Shown here: positions 34,447-41,296 of the stretch, one piece after another
Position numbering within the stretch: the first letter of the stretch is position 1
How the letters are laid out: every line of letters starts with the position of its first letter
DNA from: Ruminococcus sp. Marseille-P6503
GTDB lineage: Bacteria > Bacillota > Clostridia > Oscillospirales > Ruminococcaceae
Length of the DNA stretch: 64,000 bases
Reading direction: 5' to 3'
NCBI RefSeq assembly: GCF_900604945.1
Contig: NZ_UWPB01000002.1
Span: 248,001 to 312,000 of the forward strand
Notes under the pieces: model-generated
The model's input: the letters and a program-made list of their open reading frames with translations, nothing else
Database searches by the model: none
Told to the model about the DNA's origin: nothing
Position numbers and translations under genes: made by a program

Positions 34447-35460
34447 ATGAAAAAACTAACTGTTATCGTCACAGCACTTGCGCTGCTGCTTTCCTTTACA
34501 GCTTGCAGCGCACTTGAAGGCAACCAGTCTTCTCAGGAGCAAACTTCCCAACCGGAAACGTCACTATCTTCTACACCGGATACCAGTGCAGAAGATAGTA
34601 TGCAGGAACCATCGAACAATGAAACCGCACAGTTTAATCTGGAAACCGGAACTGTGCTGCTCAACAGCGGATATGAGATGCCGATCATCGGTCTTGGTAC
34701 TTTTCAACTTTCGGACAGCGAATGTGAAAACTCAGTCTACCATGCCCTTCTCTATGGAGGCCGTCTGATCGACACCGCCCGTATTTACGGCAACGAGGAA
34801 GCTGTGGGACGGGCCATCCAAAGGGCGATTGACGAAGGGATCTGCACCAGAGAAGAAATTTTTGTAACCACGAAGATGTGGACAGCCGATTATGACAATG
34901 CAGATGCGGCGATTGACGCCTCCCTGGAACGCCTGGGACTTGACTATATTGACCTGATGATCTTACACCACTCCCAGCCGGAAAATGACGTGGAGGCTTA
35001 TCAGGCAATGGAACGCGCGGTGGAGGATGGGAAACTGCGCTCCATTGGATTATCAAACTATTACACACCGGAGGACTTTGACCGGCTGGTGAATGCGACC
35101 ACCATTACTCCCGCCCTTTTGCAGAATGAAACGCACCTTTACCACCAGAGTACCCAGATGAAAGAACACCTGGAGCAGTATGGTACGGTTCTGGAAAGCT
35201 GGTTCCCTCTCGGTGGCAGAGGACAGACACAGATTCTCTTTAACGATGAAACGGTTGTCTCCATTGCAGAGGCCCACGATAAAACCTCGGCGCAGATTAT
35301 TCTCCGCTGGCACCTGCAGGCTGGAAATATTGCAATTCCGGGCTCCAGCAATCCCGACCATATCCTTGAAAATCTTTCGGTTTTCGATTTTGAGTTAAGT
35401 CAGGAAGAAATGGATCGTTTAACTGCACTTGACCGCAACGAGAGATTTGCAGACTACTGA
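34447..35460 (+). CDS. Aldo/keto reductase 4, predicted lipoprotein
   Basis: The 337-residue protein starts with a lipoprotein signal (MKKLTVIVTALALLLSFTAC, lipobox FTAC, Cys 20), a Ser/Gln/Glu-rich linker (21-60), then a complete AKR5-like barrel. LIDTARIYGNEEAVG near residue 108 provides Asp and Tyr, FVTTKMW near 138 the Lys and LMILHHSQ near 174 the His. IPGSSNPDHILENL is the cofactor motif. Signal plus barrel is unexpected because NADPH is cytosolic. The paralog at 33562 is cytosolic, so it may be a diverged copy with a signal sequence. It closes the operon. Confidence 0.88.
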   Translation: MKKLTVIVTALALLLSFTACSALEGNQSSQEQTSQPETSLSSTPDTSAEDSMQEPSNNETAQFNLETGTVLLNSGYEMPIIGLGTFQLSDSECENSVYHALLYGGRLIDTARIYGNEEAVGRAIQRAIDEGICTREEIFVTTKMWTADYDNADAAIDASLERLGLDYIDLMILHHSQPENDVEAYQAMERAVEDGKLRSIGLSNYYTPEDFDRLVNATTITPALLQNETHLYHQSTQMKEHLEQYGTVLESWFPLGGRGQTQILFNDETVVSIAEAHDKTSAQIILRWHLQAGNIAIPGSSNPDHILENLSVFDFELSQEEMDRLTALDRNERFADY

Positions 35461-35550: not shown

Positions 35551-35838
35551 ATGTCAGGAAAAAGCAAACCGAAGTACACAGAGGAATTCAAGCAAACAAT
35601 CGTAAATTTATATCAATCAGGGAAAACCTATTCTCAGATAAGTCAGGAATACGGAATATCGCACAGCGCCTTAGCCAACTGGATAAAGAAGTATTCAGAG
35701 GTCAAAATGGACGATAACACTATTCTTACCTCCAAGCAAATCAAGGAGCTTCAGAAACGAAACGCACAGCTTGAGGAGGAAAATCTGATATTAAAAAAAG
35801 CCATTGCGATATTCACGCCTCACTCAGACAAAGATTAA
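35551..35838 (+). CDS. IS3-family OrfA (DNA-binding)
   Basis: This 95-residue protein has the helix-turn-helix of IS3 OrfA (KYTEEFKQTIVNLYQSGKTY, then SQISQEYGISHSALANWIKK) and a leucine-zipper-like C-terminus (QIKELQKRNAQLEEENLILK). It would bind the element ends. TTAAAAAAAG at 35791-35800 allows a -1 shift into OrfB. AGGAGGAATAAAAA precedes the ATG. Confidence 0.93.
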   Translation: MSGKSKPKYTEEFKQTIVNLYQSGKTYSQISQEYGISHSALANWIKKYSEVKMDDNTILTSKQIKELQKRNAQLEEENLILKKAIAIFTPHSDKD

Positions 35839-36689
35839 AAGCCGTTAAGCTGCTTTCCGGTGAACACAAAATCACAACACTTTGCCGTGTTCTCGGTGTA
35901 AACCGAAGTACTTACTACAAATACATAAATCATCATGAAAGCAGCCGCGAAAAGGAAAACCGCCATATACGCAAATGTATTCTTGAGCTTTATACAAGAA
36001 CTAAAAAGCGTTTTGGCGCTGAAAAAATGAAAATTTGTCTTCAGCGTGATTATCGCATAAACATCAGCGCCGGCAGAGCGTACCGTCTGATGAAGAGTAT
36101 GAACTTACCTAAAATGAGCGCTGTTAAGCCATTTAAGCACAAAGCAAAATCGGGTTCCGATGGAGAATGCAAAAATATTTTGTCTCAAAATTTCAATCAA
36201 TCTGCTCCGAACAAGGCGTGGGTATGCGACTTTACATACATAAGAGCAGCGGGAAGATCTTATTACTTATGCGTAATTCTCGATCTGTTTTCAAGGAAGG
36301 TGATTGCATACAAATTATCAAATAAAATTGATACTAAACTTGCGATAGATACCGTTAATGCGGCTGTTGCCGCAAGAGGTAAATCCATAGGTATAATATT
36401 CCACACGGACAGAGGGAGCCAATTCACATCCTCTGAATTTCGCAGACATCTGGACAATCTGAACATGATTCAGTCCTTTTCGGCAAAGGGGCATCCTTAT
36501 GATAATGCTGTTATGGAATGCTTTTTCAAATACTTGAAAAAGGAAGAGGTTAACCGTAAGGCTTATTCTTCTCTTGAGGATTTAAACCTTGCTCTTTTTC
36601 AATACATTAACGGTTTTTACAATTCGGTAAGACCTCATTCTCATAATAACGGCTTGACTCCTATTCAAGCTGAATCCAATTTTTTCTGA
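35799..36689 (+). CDS. IS3-family OrfB (DDE transposase), by frameshift
   Basis: Read in the -1 frame after the A7G slip, about 296 residues. It starts with a helical HTH-like part (SLRQRLKAVKLLSGEHKITT) and contains the DDE integrase core: WVCDFTYIRAAGRSYYL (first Asp), IIFHTDRGSQFTS (second Asp) and GHPYDNAVMECFFKYLKKE (Glu). No good start codon with its own ribosome-binding site is seen at its head, so the fusion OrfAB is the likely transposase. The frame is intact, so the element may still move. Confidence 0.93.
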   Translation, partial: SHCDIHASLRQRLKAVKLLSGEHKITTLCRVLGVNRSTYYKYINHHESSREKENRHIRKCILELYTRTKKRFGAEKMKICLQRDYRINISAGRAYRLMKSMNLPKMSAVKPFKHKAKSGSDGECKNILSQNFNQSAPNKAWVCDFTYIRAAGRSYYLCVILDLFSRKVIAYKLSNKIDTKLAIDTVNAAVAARGKSIGIIFHTDRGSQFTSSEFRRHLDNLNMIQSFSAKGHPYDNAVMECFFKYLKKEEVNRKAYSSLEDLNLALFQYINGFYNSVRPHSHNNGLTPIQAESNFF

Positions 36690-36991: not shown

Positions 36992-38245
36992 CTAAGACCT
37001 TATCTGACCGCTGCCGTTGATAAGGAATTTTGTGGTGGTAAGCTCCTTTAAGCCCATTGGACCTCTGGCGTGAAGCTTCTGGGTTGATATGCCTACCTCC
37101 GCGCCCAAGCCGAACTCCTCACCGTCGGTAAAGCGCGTGGAGCAGTTTACATATACGCAGGCGGAATCTACACGGCTCTGAAATTCCTCGGCAACGTACA
37201 GGCTTTCGGTCACTACGCATTCCGAATGACCCGTCGAATATTTCGCGATATGCTCCAGAGCGTCGGCAAGTCCGTCAACGACCCTGACCGCAAGTATATA
37301 GTCGCCGAACTCCGTGGCATAGTCGTCCTCGTCGGCAGGAGTAACGTTTTCCGCTCCAAGTATCATTCTCGTCAGCTCGCAGCCCCGTATTTCCACATTG
37401 TGCTCGTCAAGCCTTGCCTTAAGCTTAGGCAGGAAATCCTCCGCGATGTCACGGTGAACAAGACAGGTTTCCACCGCGTTGCATACCGACGGACGCTGGG
37501 TCTTGCCGTTGTCCACAATATCTACCGCCATATCAACTGAAGCCGTTGAGTCAACGTAAACGTGGCAGTTGCCCGTACCCGTTTCAATTACCGGAACAGT
37601 AGCGTTCTGCACTACCGCCTTTATAAGCTGAGCGCCGCCCCTCGGTATCAGTACGTCGATATAGCCGTTCGCCTGCATCATCTGAGTAGCTATAGCTCTG
37701 TCGGTGTTCTCCACAAGCTGAATAATGTCGGGTGAAAAACCGGCAGTCTGAACCGCCTGACGCATAAGGTCGCAAAGTATTTTGTTTGAGTTGAACGCTT
37801 CCTTGCCGCCGCGGAGGATAACCGCGTTTCCGCTTTTAAGGCACAAAGCCGCGGCGTCTACCGTAACGTTGGGCCTTGCCTCGTAAATGATCCCCACAAC
37901 GCCCATAGGCACTCTTACCTTTGTTATCCTCATTCCGTTGGGACGGACCGAGCCGCTTATTATCTCGCCTATCGGGTCTTCGAGAGCAGTCAGCTTTTCA
38001 CAGGCGCAGGCTATTCCCTCGATACGCTTTTCGTCCAGCCTGAGCCTGTCCTGAAGCGACGTGGTCATATTGCGGCGCACCGCGTTCTCAAGATCAAGCT
38101 TATTTGCTTCGATGATCTTCGGCATACACCTTCTCAGAATATGCGCGATCTCAAGCAGCGCGTCGTTCTTCTGTCCCGTTGAGGCGTTTGCAAGCTCGCC
38201 TTTGCAGGCTTTTGCCTTAACGCCAAGCTCTTCAATATAGTTCAT
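36992..38245 (-). CDS. proA: Glutamate-5-semialdehyde dehydrogenase
   Basis: ProA reduces gamma-glutamyl phosphate to the semialdehyde, the second step of proline synthesis. The 417-residue protein shows the family signature TQRPSVCNAVETCLVH near residue 245 with the catalytic Cys, MGVVGIIYEARPNVTVDAAA near residue 114 and the GLGAEVGISTQKLHARGPMG C-terminal block near 383. It is separated from proB by three lipoprotein genes and a 23-codon frame but lies on the same strand and apparently in the same operon. AAAGGAG precedes the ATG. Confidence 0.97.
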   Translation of the reverse strand: MNYIEELGVKAKACKGELANASTGQKNDALLEIAHILRRCMPKIIEANKLDLENAVRRNMTTSLQDRLRLDEKRIEGIACACEKLTALEDPIGEIISGSVRPNGMRITKVRVPMGVVGIIYEARPNVTVDAAALCLKSGNAVILRGGKEAFNSNKILCDLMRQAVQTAGFSPDIIQLVENTDRAIATQMMQANGYIDVLIPRGGAQLIKAVVQNATVPVIETGTGNCHVYVDSTASVDMAVDIVDNGKTQRPSVCNAVETCLVHRDIAEDFLPKLKARLDEHNVEIRGCELTRMILGAENVTPADEDDYATEFGDYILAVRVVDGLADALEHIAKYSTGHSECVVTESLYVAEEFQSRVDSACVYVNCSTRFTDGEEFGLGAEVGISTQKLHARGPMGLKELTTTKFLINGSGQIRS

Positions 38246-38277: not shown

Positions 38278-38349
38278 TTACTTGATATGTATCATGTCCT
38301 TATCTAATTTTAATATAATTTCAAAACCGGTATCAATATTAATTGACAT
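38278..38349 (-). CDS. Very small open frame (23 codons) with strong ribosome-binding site
   Basis: The sequence AGGAGGAAAATAAA-ATG is the same start cassette as that used by the paralogous lipoprotein genes. It opens a frame MSINIDTGFEIILKLDKDMI ending HIK and stop. The peptide has no signal sequence and resembles nothing I know. It may be a small protein, a remnant of a fourth paralog unit or a coupling leader for proA, which starts 32 bases later. Confidence 0.4.
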   Translation of the reverse strand: MSINIDTGFEIILKLDKDMIHIK

Positions 38350-38361
38350 TTTATTTTCCTC

Positions 38362-39072
38362 CTAAAAATATGTAAAACTAATTCTTTTTATCAGACCTTC
38401 GGAATTAATTACAAATTCCAGATGTTTCGTATCTGATATTTCATATTTATATTCTATCTTTTTATTATTCATATTGACTTTTTCAATTGGCTCTCCGAAA
38501 TATTGGATAACCTTTTCCTTGTAGTCATTGATTTCAATACTGCCAACTGACAAGCTTATTCCTTTTGGTAAATCGTCATTCAAAAATGTAAACCCTATTG
38601 AACCTATCTTATTATCACTATAATCTTTATCATCTACCGCACAATGCATTGTTACCGTAGCCAAAGACTCTCCTTCATATAGCAGAACACAGCTTCTGAG
38701 TTCAGATTCTTCATCAACTATCATTGTTTCGTTTTGATAAGAAAAACCCTCACCCAAATCCTCCAGCGAGCATGGAAATGAAAAAGTTTTATCGCCTATA
38801 ACAACGTTACTGACGATCTTATCAAAAACATCCTCGTTAAATGTTCCGTCGTACTCATTTATTTCCGACTGAACCTCAGTTTTTCTCTGAGTATCGCTTT
38901 CCGTACTTTCCGATACCGATTCGGAAATACTGCTTTGTGTACTTCGGCTTTTATCATTATCGGTCGATAATGTGTTTTCAGAATTTTTGCAGGAGGTCAA
39001 ACTAAGCGGAAAGACTGTTAGTAAAAGCATTAGAATAATATGTGATCCTGTTTTACCCGTAAATTTCCCCAT
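38362..39072 (-). CDS. Tandem lipoprotein paralog C
   Basis: The 236-residue predicted lipoprotein has a signal ending in SLTSC (Cys near residue 28), a Ser/Thr/Asp-rich linker (29-75) and a C-terminal domain beginning EVFDKIVSNVVIGDKTFSF-like (here EDVFDKIVSNVVIGDK). The family is unrecognised. Its first 100 residues match paralog B almost exactly, while the C-terminal 100 residues differ (QYFGEPIEKVNMNNKK). GGAGGAAAATAAA upstream of the ATG overlaps the stop of paralog B. It is the last of three tandem copies inside the proBA operon. Confidence 0.75.
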   Translation of the reverse strand: MGKFTGKTGSHIILMLLLTVFPLSLTSCKNSENTLSTDNDKSRSTQSSISESVSESTESDTQRKTEVQSEINEYDGTFNEDVFDKIVSNVVIGDKTFSFPCSLEDLGEGFSYQNETMIVDEESELRSCVLLYEGESLATVTMHCAVDDKDYSDNKIGSIGFTFLNDDLPKGISLSVGSIEINDYKEKVIQYFGEPIEKVNMNNKKIEYKYEISDTKHLEFVINSEGLIKRISFTYF

Positions 39073-39073
39073 T

Positions 39074-39787
39074 TTATTTTCCTCCAAAATTAAGATCTAT
39101 AATATTTAGATGCCCATAATTAAAAGAAAGAGTCAGCCGCTTTTTATCAATTAAATATAAATATGAGCTAAAGTGACTTGAATCTTCATGATTGTCTGTC
39201 GGTTCACCAAACATTTGATTTATTTCTGCTTCTGTACTCTCAAAGGTTATTCCGCCTATTGAAATATTATCAATCGTATCCTGCCTTTTGAAAGCACTCG
39301 CAGTAAAGCTTATACAAATAATATCATTATCACTATAATCATTGTCGTCTGCTGCACAATGCATTGTGACCGTAGCCAGCAATTTACCGTCATATAACAA
39401 TCCACAGCTTCTAAGTTCGGTTTCCTCCTCATATATCATGCTTTCATCCCAAAAAGAAAAACCCTCACCCAAATCCTCCAGCGAGCATGGAAATGAAAAA
39501 GTTTTATCGCCTATAACAACATTACTGACGATCTTATCAAAAACCTCTTCATTGAAAGTTCCGTCGTACTCATTTATTTCCGACTGAACCTCAGTTTTGC
39601 TCTCAGTATCGCTATTTGTACTTTCCGATACCGATTCGGAAATACTGCTTTGTGTACTTCGGCTTTTATCATTATCGGTCGATAATGTGTTTTCAGAATT
39701 TTTGCAGGAGGTCAAACTAAGCGGAAAGACTGTTAGTAAAAGCATTAGAATAATATGTGATCCTGTTTTACCCGTAAATTTCCCCAT
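39074..39787 (-). CDS. Tandem lipoprotein paralog B
   Basis: The 237-residue protein shares the signal MGKFTGKTGSHIILMLLLTV and lipobox LTSC with paralog C, and most of the C-terminal domain with paralog A (CISFTASAFKRQDTIDNISI; GGITFESTEAEINQMFGEPT). The last codons GGA GGA AAA TAA are at once the ribosome-binding site and spacer of paralog C, which starts one base later. The family is unrecognised. It looks like a chimera of its neighbours, consistent with gene conversion in a tandem array. Confidence 0.78.
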   Translation of the reverse strand: MGKFTGKTGSHIILMLLLTVFPLSLTSCKNSENTLSTDNDKSRSTQSSISESVSESTNSDTESKTEVQSEINEYDGTFNEEVFDKIVSNVVIGDKTFSFPCSLEDLGEGFSFWDESMIYEEETELRSCGLLYDGKLLATVTMHCAADDNDYSDNDIICISFTASAFKRQDTIDNISIGGITFESTEAEINQMFGEPTDNHEDSSHFSSYLYLIDKKRLTLSFNYGHLNIIDLNFGGK

Positions 39788-39788
39788 T

Positions 39789-40481
39789 TTATTTTCCTCC
39801 CAATTTAAACTCTATAATATTTAGGTTCCCGCTATTAAAAGAAAGGGTCATTCGCTTATTATCAATAGAATAAATATATAATTCAAAATCATCAGAATCT
39901 TCATACTTATCTATTGGTTCACCAAACATTTGAAGTATTTCTTCTTCAGTACTATCAAAGGTTATTCCGCCTATTGAAATGTTATCTATTGTTGTCTGCC
40001 TTTTGAAATCACTCGCAGTAAAACTTATACAAATAATATCATTATCACTATAATCATTATCGTCTGCTGCACAATGCATTGTTACCGTAGCCAAAGATTC
40101 TCCTTCATATAGCAGAACACTGCTTCTAAGTTCAGTTTCTTCCTCATACATCATGAGATCATCCCAAAAAGAAAAACCCTCACCCAAATCCTCCAGTGAG
40201 CATGGAAATGAAAAAGTTTTATCGCCTATAACAACGTTACTGACGATCTTATCAAAAACTTCCTCGTTAAATGTTCCGTCGTACTCATTTATTTCCGACT
40301 GAACCTCAGTTTTGCTCTGAGTATCGCTTTCCGTACTTTCCGATACCGATTCGGAAATACTGCTTTGTGTACTTCGGCTTTTATCATTATCGGTCGATAA
40401 TGTGTTTTCAGAATTTTTGCAGGCTGTTGAATTCGAAGCTAAAATAACAGCAGCCATAATTAAAACAAGTTTTCTTTTCAT
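39789..40481 (-). CDS. Tandem lipoprotein paralog A
   Basis: The 230-residue protein is the first copy in transcription order. It has a different signal (MKRKLVLIMAAVILASNSTAC, lipobox STAC, Cys 21) but the same linker KNSENTLSTDNDKSRSTQSS as its neighbours. The domain FSFPCSLEDLGEGFSFWDDL follows near residue 95. It ends LGGK and stop, where GGAGGAAAATAA supplies the ribosome-binding site for paralog B. It begins 23 bases after proB. The family is unrecognised. Confidence 0.78.
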   Translation of the reverse strand: MKRKLVLIMAAVILASNSTACKNSENTLSTDNDKSRSTQSSISESVSESTESDTQSKTEVQSEINEYDGTFNEEVFDKIVSNVVIGDKTFSFPCSLEDLGEGFSFWDDLMMYEEETELRSSVLLYEGESLATVTMHCAADDNDYSDNDIICISFTASDFKRQTTIDNISIGGITFDSTEEEILQMFGEPIDKYEDSDDFELYIYSIDNKRMTLSFNSGNLNIIEFKLGGK

Positions 40482-40504: not shown

Positions 40505-41296
40505 CTACTTTGCCGCCTTGAAAAGCGTTCCCAGATTTCCGTTCTCAAAAAGATAATATAGGTTGTCCGGGTTCTTTCCGTTCAGGATTATCATGTCTAT
40601 TCCGCTGTTTACGGCTATTTCCGCGGCGTTTATCTTTGTTATCATTCCGCCTGTGCCCAGCTTTGTTCCCGCTCCGCCCGCAAGCGCCCTTATCTCGTCG
40701 GTGATCTCCTCAACCACAGGAATAAGCTCAGCGTTTTCGTTCTGTCTGGGGTCGCTGTCGTAAAGCCCGTCTATATCGGACATTATCACAAGCAGATCGG
40801 CATGAGCGATAGAAGCTACCGTCGCGGCGAGGGAATCGTTCTCTCCCACCTCAAGCTCCAACTCGTCGATAGCTACTGTGTCGTTCTCATTGACTACGGG
40901 AATAACTCCCTGCTGTATAAGCCTTTCAAGCGCGTTCTGTACGTTTATCCTTCTGTCCTCTATAAGAATATACTTGGTCAGCAGAACCTGCGCCACAGTC
41001 AGACCGTAATCGGAAAAAAGCTTGTCGTAAAGATACATAAGCTCGCACTGACCGACTGCTGCGCACGCCTGTTTTGAGGGAGTGTCCTTAGGTCTTTCCA
41101 TAAGCCCCAGCTTCGCCACTCCCAACGCGATAGAACCGCTTGAAACCAGAATTATCTCATGTCCGGCGTTATGGAGATCGGCGATATTCTTTACAAGCTG
41201 CTCCACACGCCTTATGTTAAGCCTGCCCGTTCTGTGAGTAAGCGTCGAGCTTCCCAGCTTTACGACTACTCTTTTTTTATCTTTCAGATATGACAT
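40505..41296 (-). CDS. proB: Glutamate 5-kinase
   Basis: ProB phosphorylates glutamate in proline synthesis. The 263-residue protein has only the amino-acid-kinase domain: VVKLGSSTLTHRTGRLN near residue 11, VSSGSIALGVAKLG near 51, VNENDTVAIDELELEVGEND near 136 and TKLGTGGMITKINAAEIAVN near 212. The PUA domain found in the E. coli enzyme is absent, as in many clostridial forms. It starts nine bases after the preceding 193-residue gene and heads the segment that includes the lipoproteins and proA. Confidence 0.97.
   Translation of the reverse strand: MSYLKDKKRVVVKLGSSTLTHRTGRLNIRRVEQLVKNIADLHNAGHEIILVSSGSIALGVAKLGLMERPKDTPSKQACAAVGQCELMYLYDKLFSDYGLTVAQVLLTKYILIEDRRINVQNALERLIQQGVIPVVNENDTVAIDELELEVGENDSLAATVASIAHADLLVIMSDIDGLYDSDPRQNENAELIPVVEEITDEIRALAGGAGTKLGTGGMITKINAAEIAVNSGIDMIILNGKNPDNLYYLFENGNLGTLFKAAK

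What the first reader, a model, noticed from the sequence alone, without database searches (positions are those of the whole stretch)
38362..40481. Triplicated lipoproteins in the proBA operon with stop-SD overlap
Three paralogs lie between proB and proA. The last codons of A and B (GGA GGA AAA TAA) are the ribosome-binding site of the next copy, so the duplication unit preserves coupling. Copies B and C share signals and linkers, A and B the domain, showing recombination between copies. A surface protein array embedded in proline synthesis may serve osmotic or envelope stress, and could vary by copy number.
Basis: partly seen in the sequence, partly recalled or inferred. Interest (0 to 1): 0.6.

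Follow-up and report, generated by a model that had tools for sequence, protein, structure and literature searches.

The report
Orphaned partner lipoproteins of lost RTX
Three near-copies of a surface lipoprotein gene inside a gut bacterium's proline operon are not proline genes: they are the leftover, shuffled partners of a giant calcium-binding secreted protein that travels on a conjugative element and whose own gene here is cut down to its first 19 codons, so they most likely now act as orphan immunity proteins.

Summary
Three paralogous lipoprotein genes (230, 237, 236 aa) lie between proB and proA. Each ends in the ribosome-binding site of the next gene, and the copies are recombination mosaics. 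The proline/osmotic reading is not supported. In Ruminococcus sp. UBA1394 (proA only 67% identical) a single copy, 95% identical in DNA, sits 1 bp upstream of a 1,907-aa RTX gene. That gene is cargo of a conjugative element, followed by a type I exporter, and has a FrpC-type self-processing module. In the window the same ATG, with the same ribosome-binding site, follows copy C: 19 RTX codons remain (6 synonymous, 0 non-synonymous differences), then similarity ends. The genome has no RTX gene left, but carries the same conjugative element (94-99% identical) with other toxin-like cargo. Four further lipoprotein/SPM-protein pairs, in three other genomes of the family, support a lipoprotein-RTX module. 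proB and proA are adjacent, or hold unrelated genes, in relatives. Most likely the array is an orphan, diversifying set of partner (probably immunity) lipoproteins. The origin is shown; the immunity role is inferred from anatomy and the FrpD/FrpC and Smlt3025/Smlt3024 precedents. The predicted fold is BamE/BLIP/DUF4309-like; FrpD was not among its matches.

The parts
39789..40481 (-). lipoprotein copy A (230 aa), closest to the UBA1394 cargo lipoprotein (93% aa; 95% DNA over 708 bp)
39074..39787 (-). lipoprotein copy B (237 aa); signal peptide of C type, C-terminal half of A type
38362..39072 (-). lipoprotein copy C (236 aa); linker and N-half like A, divergent C-terminal half
38278..38349 (-). 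stump of the lost RTX gene: 23-aa ORF MSINIDTGFEIILKLDKDMIHIK*, of which the first 19 codons match codons 1-19 of the UBA1394 RTX gene (6 synonymous, 0 non-synonymous differences); DNA similarity ends at 38292
39785..39801 (-). A-to-B junction GGGAGGAAAATAAAATG (stop codon and ribosome-binding site overlap); the 17-bp junction is identical ahead of the UBA1394 RTX gene
39070..39085 (-). B-to-C junction GGAGGAAAATAAAATG
38347..38362 (-). C-to-stump junction GGAGGAAAATAAAATG; C stops at TAG inside AGGAGG
40505..41296 (-). proB, glutamate 5-kinase; host gene upstream of the inserted array
   Evidence: TIGR01027
36992..38245 (-). proA, glutamate-5-semialdehyde dehydrogenase; host gene downstream of the inserted array
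   Evidence: NF001221, TIGR00407

Best explanation
The array is the remnant of a horizontally acquired lipoprotein-RTX cassette that landed between proB and proA. Shown by sequence: the lipoprotein is the upstream partner of a giant RTX protein with a FrpC-type self-processing module, carried with its own type I exporter in the cargo slot of a conjugative element in another species; in the window the RTX gene is reduced to 19 codons while the partner gene is present three times as recombining mosaics. Inferred: the lipoproteins are anchored outside the membrane and bind the N-terminal domain of the RTX protein (or of related ones) released by neighbouring cells. With the effector gone, they are kept and diversified as orphan immunity proteins, each copy with its own binding surface, translated through stop/start coupling and probably transcribed from the proBA operon because that site is a permissive slot.
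For: Stump of the RTX gene with 6 synonymous and 0 non-synonymous changes in 19 codons. Lipoprotein DNA 95% identical to UBA1394 while proA/proB proteins are 67-69% identical. Lowest-GC 2.2 kb of the window, 34.3% against 47.1 +/- 2.7. RTX residues 386-553 match the FrpC self-processing module structure 6sjw (E 1.6e-28), with Asp-Pro in place. Exporter ABC (C39) and HlyD, serine recombinase, MobL relaxase and conjugation genes around the UBA1394 cassette. Lipoprotein directly upstream of an SPM-bearing protein in G216 and twice in G267, and of an RTX-N plus SPM start in G208. Same element in the window's genome, with Ntox44 and RHS proteins in the same cargo slot. No RTX repeat anywhere in the genome. 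Precedent: FrpD binds the FrpC N-terminus at Kd ~0.2 nM (PMC5233953); Smlt3025, an FrpD-fold protein, is the immunity protein of Smlt3024, a homologue of RTX N-termini, and its authors propose FrpC/FrpD as effector/immunity (PMC6759196). Exchanged segments lie in the globular domain: 13 of 33 residues differ between A and UBA1394 at about residues 101-133, against 3 of 132 in the rest of the domain.
Against: No toxicity is known for this RTX N-terminal domain; it matches no Pfam family and its structure model failed. The lipoprotein domain is predicted as BamE/BLIP/DUF4309-like, with FrpD absent from the matches. Many distant members of the lipoprotein family sit in housekeeping operons without an RTX gene, so the family has wider uses. 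dN/dS between copies is below 1 (about 0.25-0.5), so diversifying selection is not shown; exchange between copies also explains the variable segment. Promoter and expression were not tested.
Confidence: 0.55

Rival explanations
1. Surface-anchor reading (FrpD adhesion model): the lipoprotein tethers or captures the clipped N-terminal RTX fragment so that the cell sticks to whatever the RTX protein has been cross-linked to; the three copies now capture RTX fragments made by others or have lost their use.
For: FrpD/FrpC in Neisseria is described this way: FrpC1-414 becomes covalently linked to host proteins and is bound by FrpD (PMC5233953). The UBA1394 RTX protein has the same order: N-domain of 384 aa, Asp-Pro, SPM, RTX repeats.
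Against: An anchor loses its point when its ligand is deleted, yet three intact copies remain. The element's other cargo is toxin-like (Ntox44, RHS).
Confidence: 0.2
2. General envelope lipoproteins: the BamE/BLIP-like domain has a housekeeping or inhibitor role unrelated to RTX proteins; the pairing in UBA1394 is one of many chance neighbourhoods.
For: Distant family members lie in rimM-trmD, hisZ-hisG and ruvC-ruvA gene pairs with no RTX nearby. The fold is shared with BamE, DUF4309 and CAP-associated domains.
Against: Direct adjacency (gap -8 to 48 bp) to SPM/RTX-N genes in UBA1394, G208, G216 and twice in G267, out of about 30 lipoprotein ORFs examined, and the RTX stump left in the window, which ties this array to RTX.
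Confidence: 0.15
3. Decaying relic: the array is neutral debris of a transferred cassette, duplicated by recombination and awaiting loss.
For: The effector gene is already lost, and the array is AT-rich and foreign.
Against: Three full-length ORFs, each with a lipobox cysteine and a ribosome-binding site; differences in the domain favour synonymous sites (dN/dS about 0.25 for A/B).
Confidence: 0.08
4. One reading: a surface protein array serving osmotic or envelope stress through co-regulation with proline synthesis.
For: Same strand and operon-like spacing with proB and proA; no terminator-like site on the minus strand inside the array.
Against: No other fetched homologue lies at proBA; the proB-proA gap is empty or holds other genes in relatives; horizontal origin.
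Confidence: 0.02

Closest known systems
FrpD-FrpC of Neisseria meningitidis (frpDC operon)
   Same: Lipoprotein gene immediately upstream of a giant RTX gene (1829 aa there, 1907 aa in UBA1394); N-terminal domain of about 400 aa, then Asp-Pro, self-processing module, then RTX repeats.
   Different: Host is a Firmicute (Ruminococcus); cassette lies on a conjugative element; lipoprotein model is BamE/BLIP-like, ends in beta strands and did not retrieve FrpD; in the window only the lipoproteins remain, in three copies.
Smlt3025-Smlt3024 immunity/effector pair of Stenotrophomonas maltophilia (T4SS)
   Different: Smlt3024 is exported by a type IV system, not a type I exporter; Smlt3025 has the FrpD topology.
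Orphan immunity arrays (rAID) of gut Bacteroidales
   Same: Arrays of divergent immunity genes without their effector (PMC12247911).
   Different: Bacteroidales, recombinase-associated, against type VI effectors, and experimentally shown; here a Gram-positive, against a type I-exported RTX protein, and inferred.
BLIP / BamE (SmpA-OmlA) / DUF4309 (YjgB) / CAP-associated domain fold group
   Same: Predicted fold of the globular domain: 4h0a Z 8.2, 4ygt Z 7.4, BtiO immunity protein 9uu1 Z 5.2, BamE 5d0o Z 5.1.
   Different: No sequence-level membership: best DUF4309 hit for copy C is E 0.03, below the curated cut-off.

Membership tests
FrpD-FrpC-type lipoprotein/RTX-SPM module | lipoprotein gene immediately upstream of an RTX gene | tested here: met
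   Met in UBA1394 (1 bp), G208 (48 bp; RTX-N and SPM start only), G216 (19 bp), G267 twice (-8 and 10 bp; few or no RTX repeats); in the window only as a 19-codon stump.
FrpD-FrpC-type lipoprotein/RTX-SPM module | RTX partner carries the self-processing module with Asp-Pro at its start | tested here: met
   UBA1394 RTX residues 386-553 match 6sjw at E 1.6e-28 with VDPLILDINGDG; not testable in the window, where the gene is lost.
FrpD-FrpC-type lipoprotein/RTX-SPM module | lipoprotein has the FrpD fold (C-terminal helix across an antiparallel sheet) | tested here: inconclusive
   The model ends in beta strands and best matches are BamE/BLIP/DUF4309-like; FrpD does not appear in the list, which does not exclude it.
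FrpD-FrpC-type lipoprotein/RTX-SPM module | lipoprotein binds the RTX N-terminal domain | not testable with these tools
   needs purified proteins
orphan immunity array | two or more homologous immunity genes without an adjacent intact effector | tested here: met
   Three copies; effector gene reduced to 19 codons; no RTX repeats in the genome. That the genes are immunity genes is itself inferred.
orphan immunity array | homologous to a cognate gene that sits next to an effector elsewhere | tested here: met
   UBA1394, 95% DNA identity, directly upstream of the RTX gene; that the RTX protein is an effector is inferred.
orphan immunity array | protects against the effector | not testable with these tools
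   needs a growth assay
proBA-linked stress operon | homologues conserved at proBA in relatives | tested here: not met
   0 of 15 other genus genomes carry a close homologue, and none was found at proBA.

The most novel reading that the evidence does not exclude
Gram-positive gut bacteria exchange, on conjugative elements, a type I-exported RTX effector with a clip-and-link module together with a dedicated lipoprotein immunity protein of BamE/BLIP-like fold; recipients that lose the effector keep and amplify the immunity gene as a recombining array parked in a housekeeping operon. This would be an RTX-based interbacterial antagonism system with acquired immunity in Firmicutes.
Probability: 0.4. 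Interest if true: 0.75.

Novelty: new variant of a known kind. Interest (0 to 1): 0.55.

Why it matters
The function of FrpC-type clip-and-link RTX proteins is unsettled (adhesion or antibacterial effector); [quoted passage not shown] A natural case in which a recipient dropped the RTX gene but tripled and shuffled the lipoprotein partner is what the immunity model predicts and the adhesion model does not. It offers small proteins from a gut commensal with which to test that question, and a Gram-positive setting for orphan immunity arrays, which the papers read here describe in Gram-negatives.

Tried and rejected
Pfam, NCBIfam and PADLOC on the lipoproteins: nothing above cut-off. Plasmid records: no homologue. 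IMG/VR: no relative of the lipoprotein or of the RTX N-domain, so no evidence of a phage carrier. PDB by sequence profile: nothing credible. AlphaFold model of the RTX N-domain from a two-row alignment failed (pLDDT 39) and was not used. Foldseek and VIA-align did not list FrpD among matches. BFVD gave no strong match. Other strains of the window's species: none found in the searched collections, so copy-number variation is untested. proBA linkage as the organising idea was rejected after comparing the gap across the genus. The genus of UBA1394 (11 genomes) has no second close copy.

Full report
What is in the sequence. On the minus strand, between proB (40505-41296) and proA (36992-38245), lie three intact lipoprotein genes: A 39789-40481, B 39074-39787 and C 38362-39072. 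Each has a signal peptide ending in a cysteine, a Ser/Thr/Glu-rich linker and a globular domain of about 165 residues. A and B end GGA GGA AAA TAA, which is the ribosome-binding site of the next ATG. The genome has no further copy.

The copies are mosaics. Signal-peptide DNA is identical in B and C and quite different in A; the linker is nearly identical in all three; the first part of the domain is closest between A and C; the C-terminal half is shared by A and B and diverges in C. Informative sites cluster strongly (61 runs, 124 expected, 0 of 20,000 shuffles); within columns 105-480 alone the clustering is weaker (p = 0.008). Part of the overall clustering simply reflects the swapped signal peptide and the divergent end of C.

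What the array came from. The only close relative found is in Ruminococcus sp. UBA1394 (L009), where one copy, 95% identical in DNA over 708 bp, is followed 1 bp after its stop by a 1,907-aa RTX gene. The proA and proB proteins of the two genomes are only 67-69% identical, so the lipoprotein moved horizontally. The RTX gene begins MSINIDTGFEIILKLDKDM; so does the small ORF after copy C. Over these 19 codons there are 6 synonymous and no non-synonymous differences, after which similarity stops. The window therefore holds the start of a lost RTX gene, and the repeated stop/ribosome-site overlap is the old lipoprotein-to-RTX junction (17 bp identical at the A-to-B junction). No RTX repeat remains in the genome. 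The array is the most AT-rich 2.2 kb of the window (34.3% GC against 47.1 +/- 2.7).

The partner. UBA1394's RTX protein has a 384-residue N-terminal domain without Pfam match, then Asp-Pro and a self-processing module (residues 386-553 match the FrpC module structure 6sjw, E 1.6e-28), then RTX repeats. Downstream are a second RTX protein with an Mbeg1-like domain, a C39-type ABC exporter and HlyD, then serine recombinases; upstream are a MobL relaxase and VirB4/VirD4-type conjugation genes. It is cargo of a conjugative element. The same element backbone occurs in the window's own genome at 94-99% identity, where its cargo slot after the relaxase holds an Ntox44/VWA protein and an RHS protein, both classes known from polymorphic toxins (general knowledge).

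How general is the pairing. In about 400 genomes of the family, lipoproteins of this family lie directly upstream of genes with this RTX N-domain or the self-processing module in G208, G216 and twice in G267; an exporter ABC gene follows in G208 and G267. The G208 partner is short (368 aa: N-domain and only the start of the module), and G267's partners have few or no RTX repeats. The G216 partner gene's N-terminus reads more like a membrane anchor than a clean lipobox. Another SPM protein without a Sec-type start, in G380, has a different lipoprotein upstream. Other members of the broad lipoprotein family sit inside housekeeping gene sets (rimM-trmD, hisZ-hisG, ruvC-ruvA) with no RTX gene, so the family is wider than this module.

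Why not proline. In the relatives examined, proB and proA are adjacent (16-279 bp) in UBA1394, G002, G008, G011, G014 and G015; other genus members have unrelated genes in the gap, for instance membrane proteins in most, or a methyltransferase and another protein in G010. The gap is a tolerant slot, and the array's link to proline synthesis looks incidental.

Function. [quoted passage not shown]). In Stenotrophomonas, Smlt3025, with an FrpD-like topology, is the immunity protein for Smlt3024, a homologue of RTX N-termini, and those authors propose that FrpC/FrpD are effector and immunity protein (PMC6759196). Loss of the RTX gene with retention and diversification of its partner fits immunity better than adhesion. 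The variable segment (about residues 101-133: 13 of 33 positions differ between A and UBA1394, 3 of 132 elsewhere in the domain) would be the natural place for specificity, but exchange from another allele is enough to explain it and dN/dS is below 1. The lipoprotein model (domain pLDDT mostly above 90) resembles BamE/BLIP/DUF4309/CAP-associated domains, including the T6SS immunity protein BtiO (Z 5.2). Z values below 8 are weak evidence, and FrpD is not in the list. So 'works like FrpD' rests on gene order and partner type, not on fold.

Verdict. Origin as an orphaned lipoprotein-RTX cassette: strongly supported. Immunity role: the best guess, about even odds. The proline/osmotic reading: not supported.

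Noticed in passing
G000:C4 about 573000-609000 (L150, L151); L152; L153:5837-7130: The window's genome carries at least one near-full copy, and pieces, of the same conjugative element as UBA1394 (94-99% DNA), with an Ntox44/VWA protein (L151:2699-6601) and an RHS protein (L151:11019-17606) in the cargo slot.
   Followed up: partly
L151:393-2196: A 478-aa protein followed by a 112-aa ORF resembling the start of Sec-type SPM/RTX proteins, cut short where a duplicated Sel1/relaxase end begins; possibly a second effector lost with its neighbour kept.
   Followed up: partly
proB-proA gap in L034, L039-L048: The proB-proA intergenic slot holds different genes in different species of the genus (0 to about 4.6 kb), as if it were a tolerant insertion site.
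   Followed up: partly
L112:9126-9686, L130:2891-3538, L011:8200-8733, L012:6410-6955: Distant relatives of the lipoprotein sit between rimM and trmD, between hisZ and hisG, and between ruvC and ruvA: a recurring habit of lipoproteins inside housekeeping operons.
   Followed up: partly
L120:5688-12547: G267 has two lipoprotein-SPM protein pairs in tandem followed by an ABC exporter and HlyD; the 655-aa SPM protein has no RTX repeats found by the motif search.
   Followed up: partly
window 35551-36689: IS3-type transposase genes (HTH_Tnp_1 and rve) just downstream of proA.
   Followed up: no
window 34447-35460: Aldo/keto reductase with a lipoprotein-type signal and an acidic linker, i.e. predicted to be surface-anchored, which is unusual for this enzyme family.
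   Followed up: no
L104:7026-7733: A lipoprotein in G123 shares the window copies' linker (85% DNA over 92 bp) but has a very different domain, suggesting that signal/linker segments are swapped between lipoproteins across genera.
   Followed up: no
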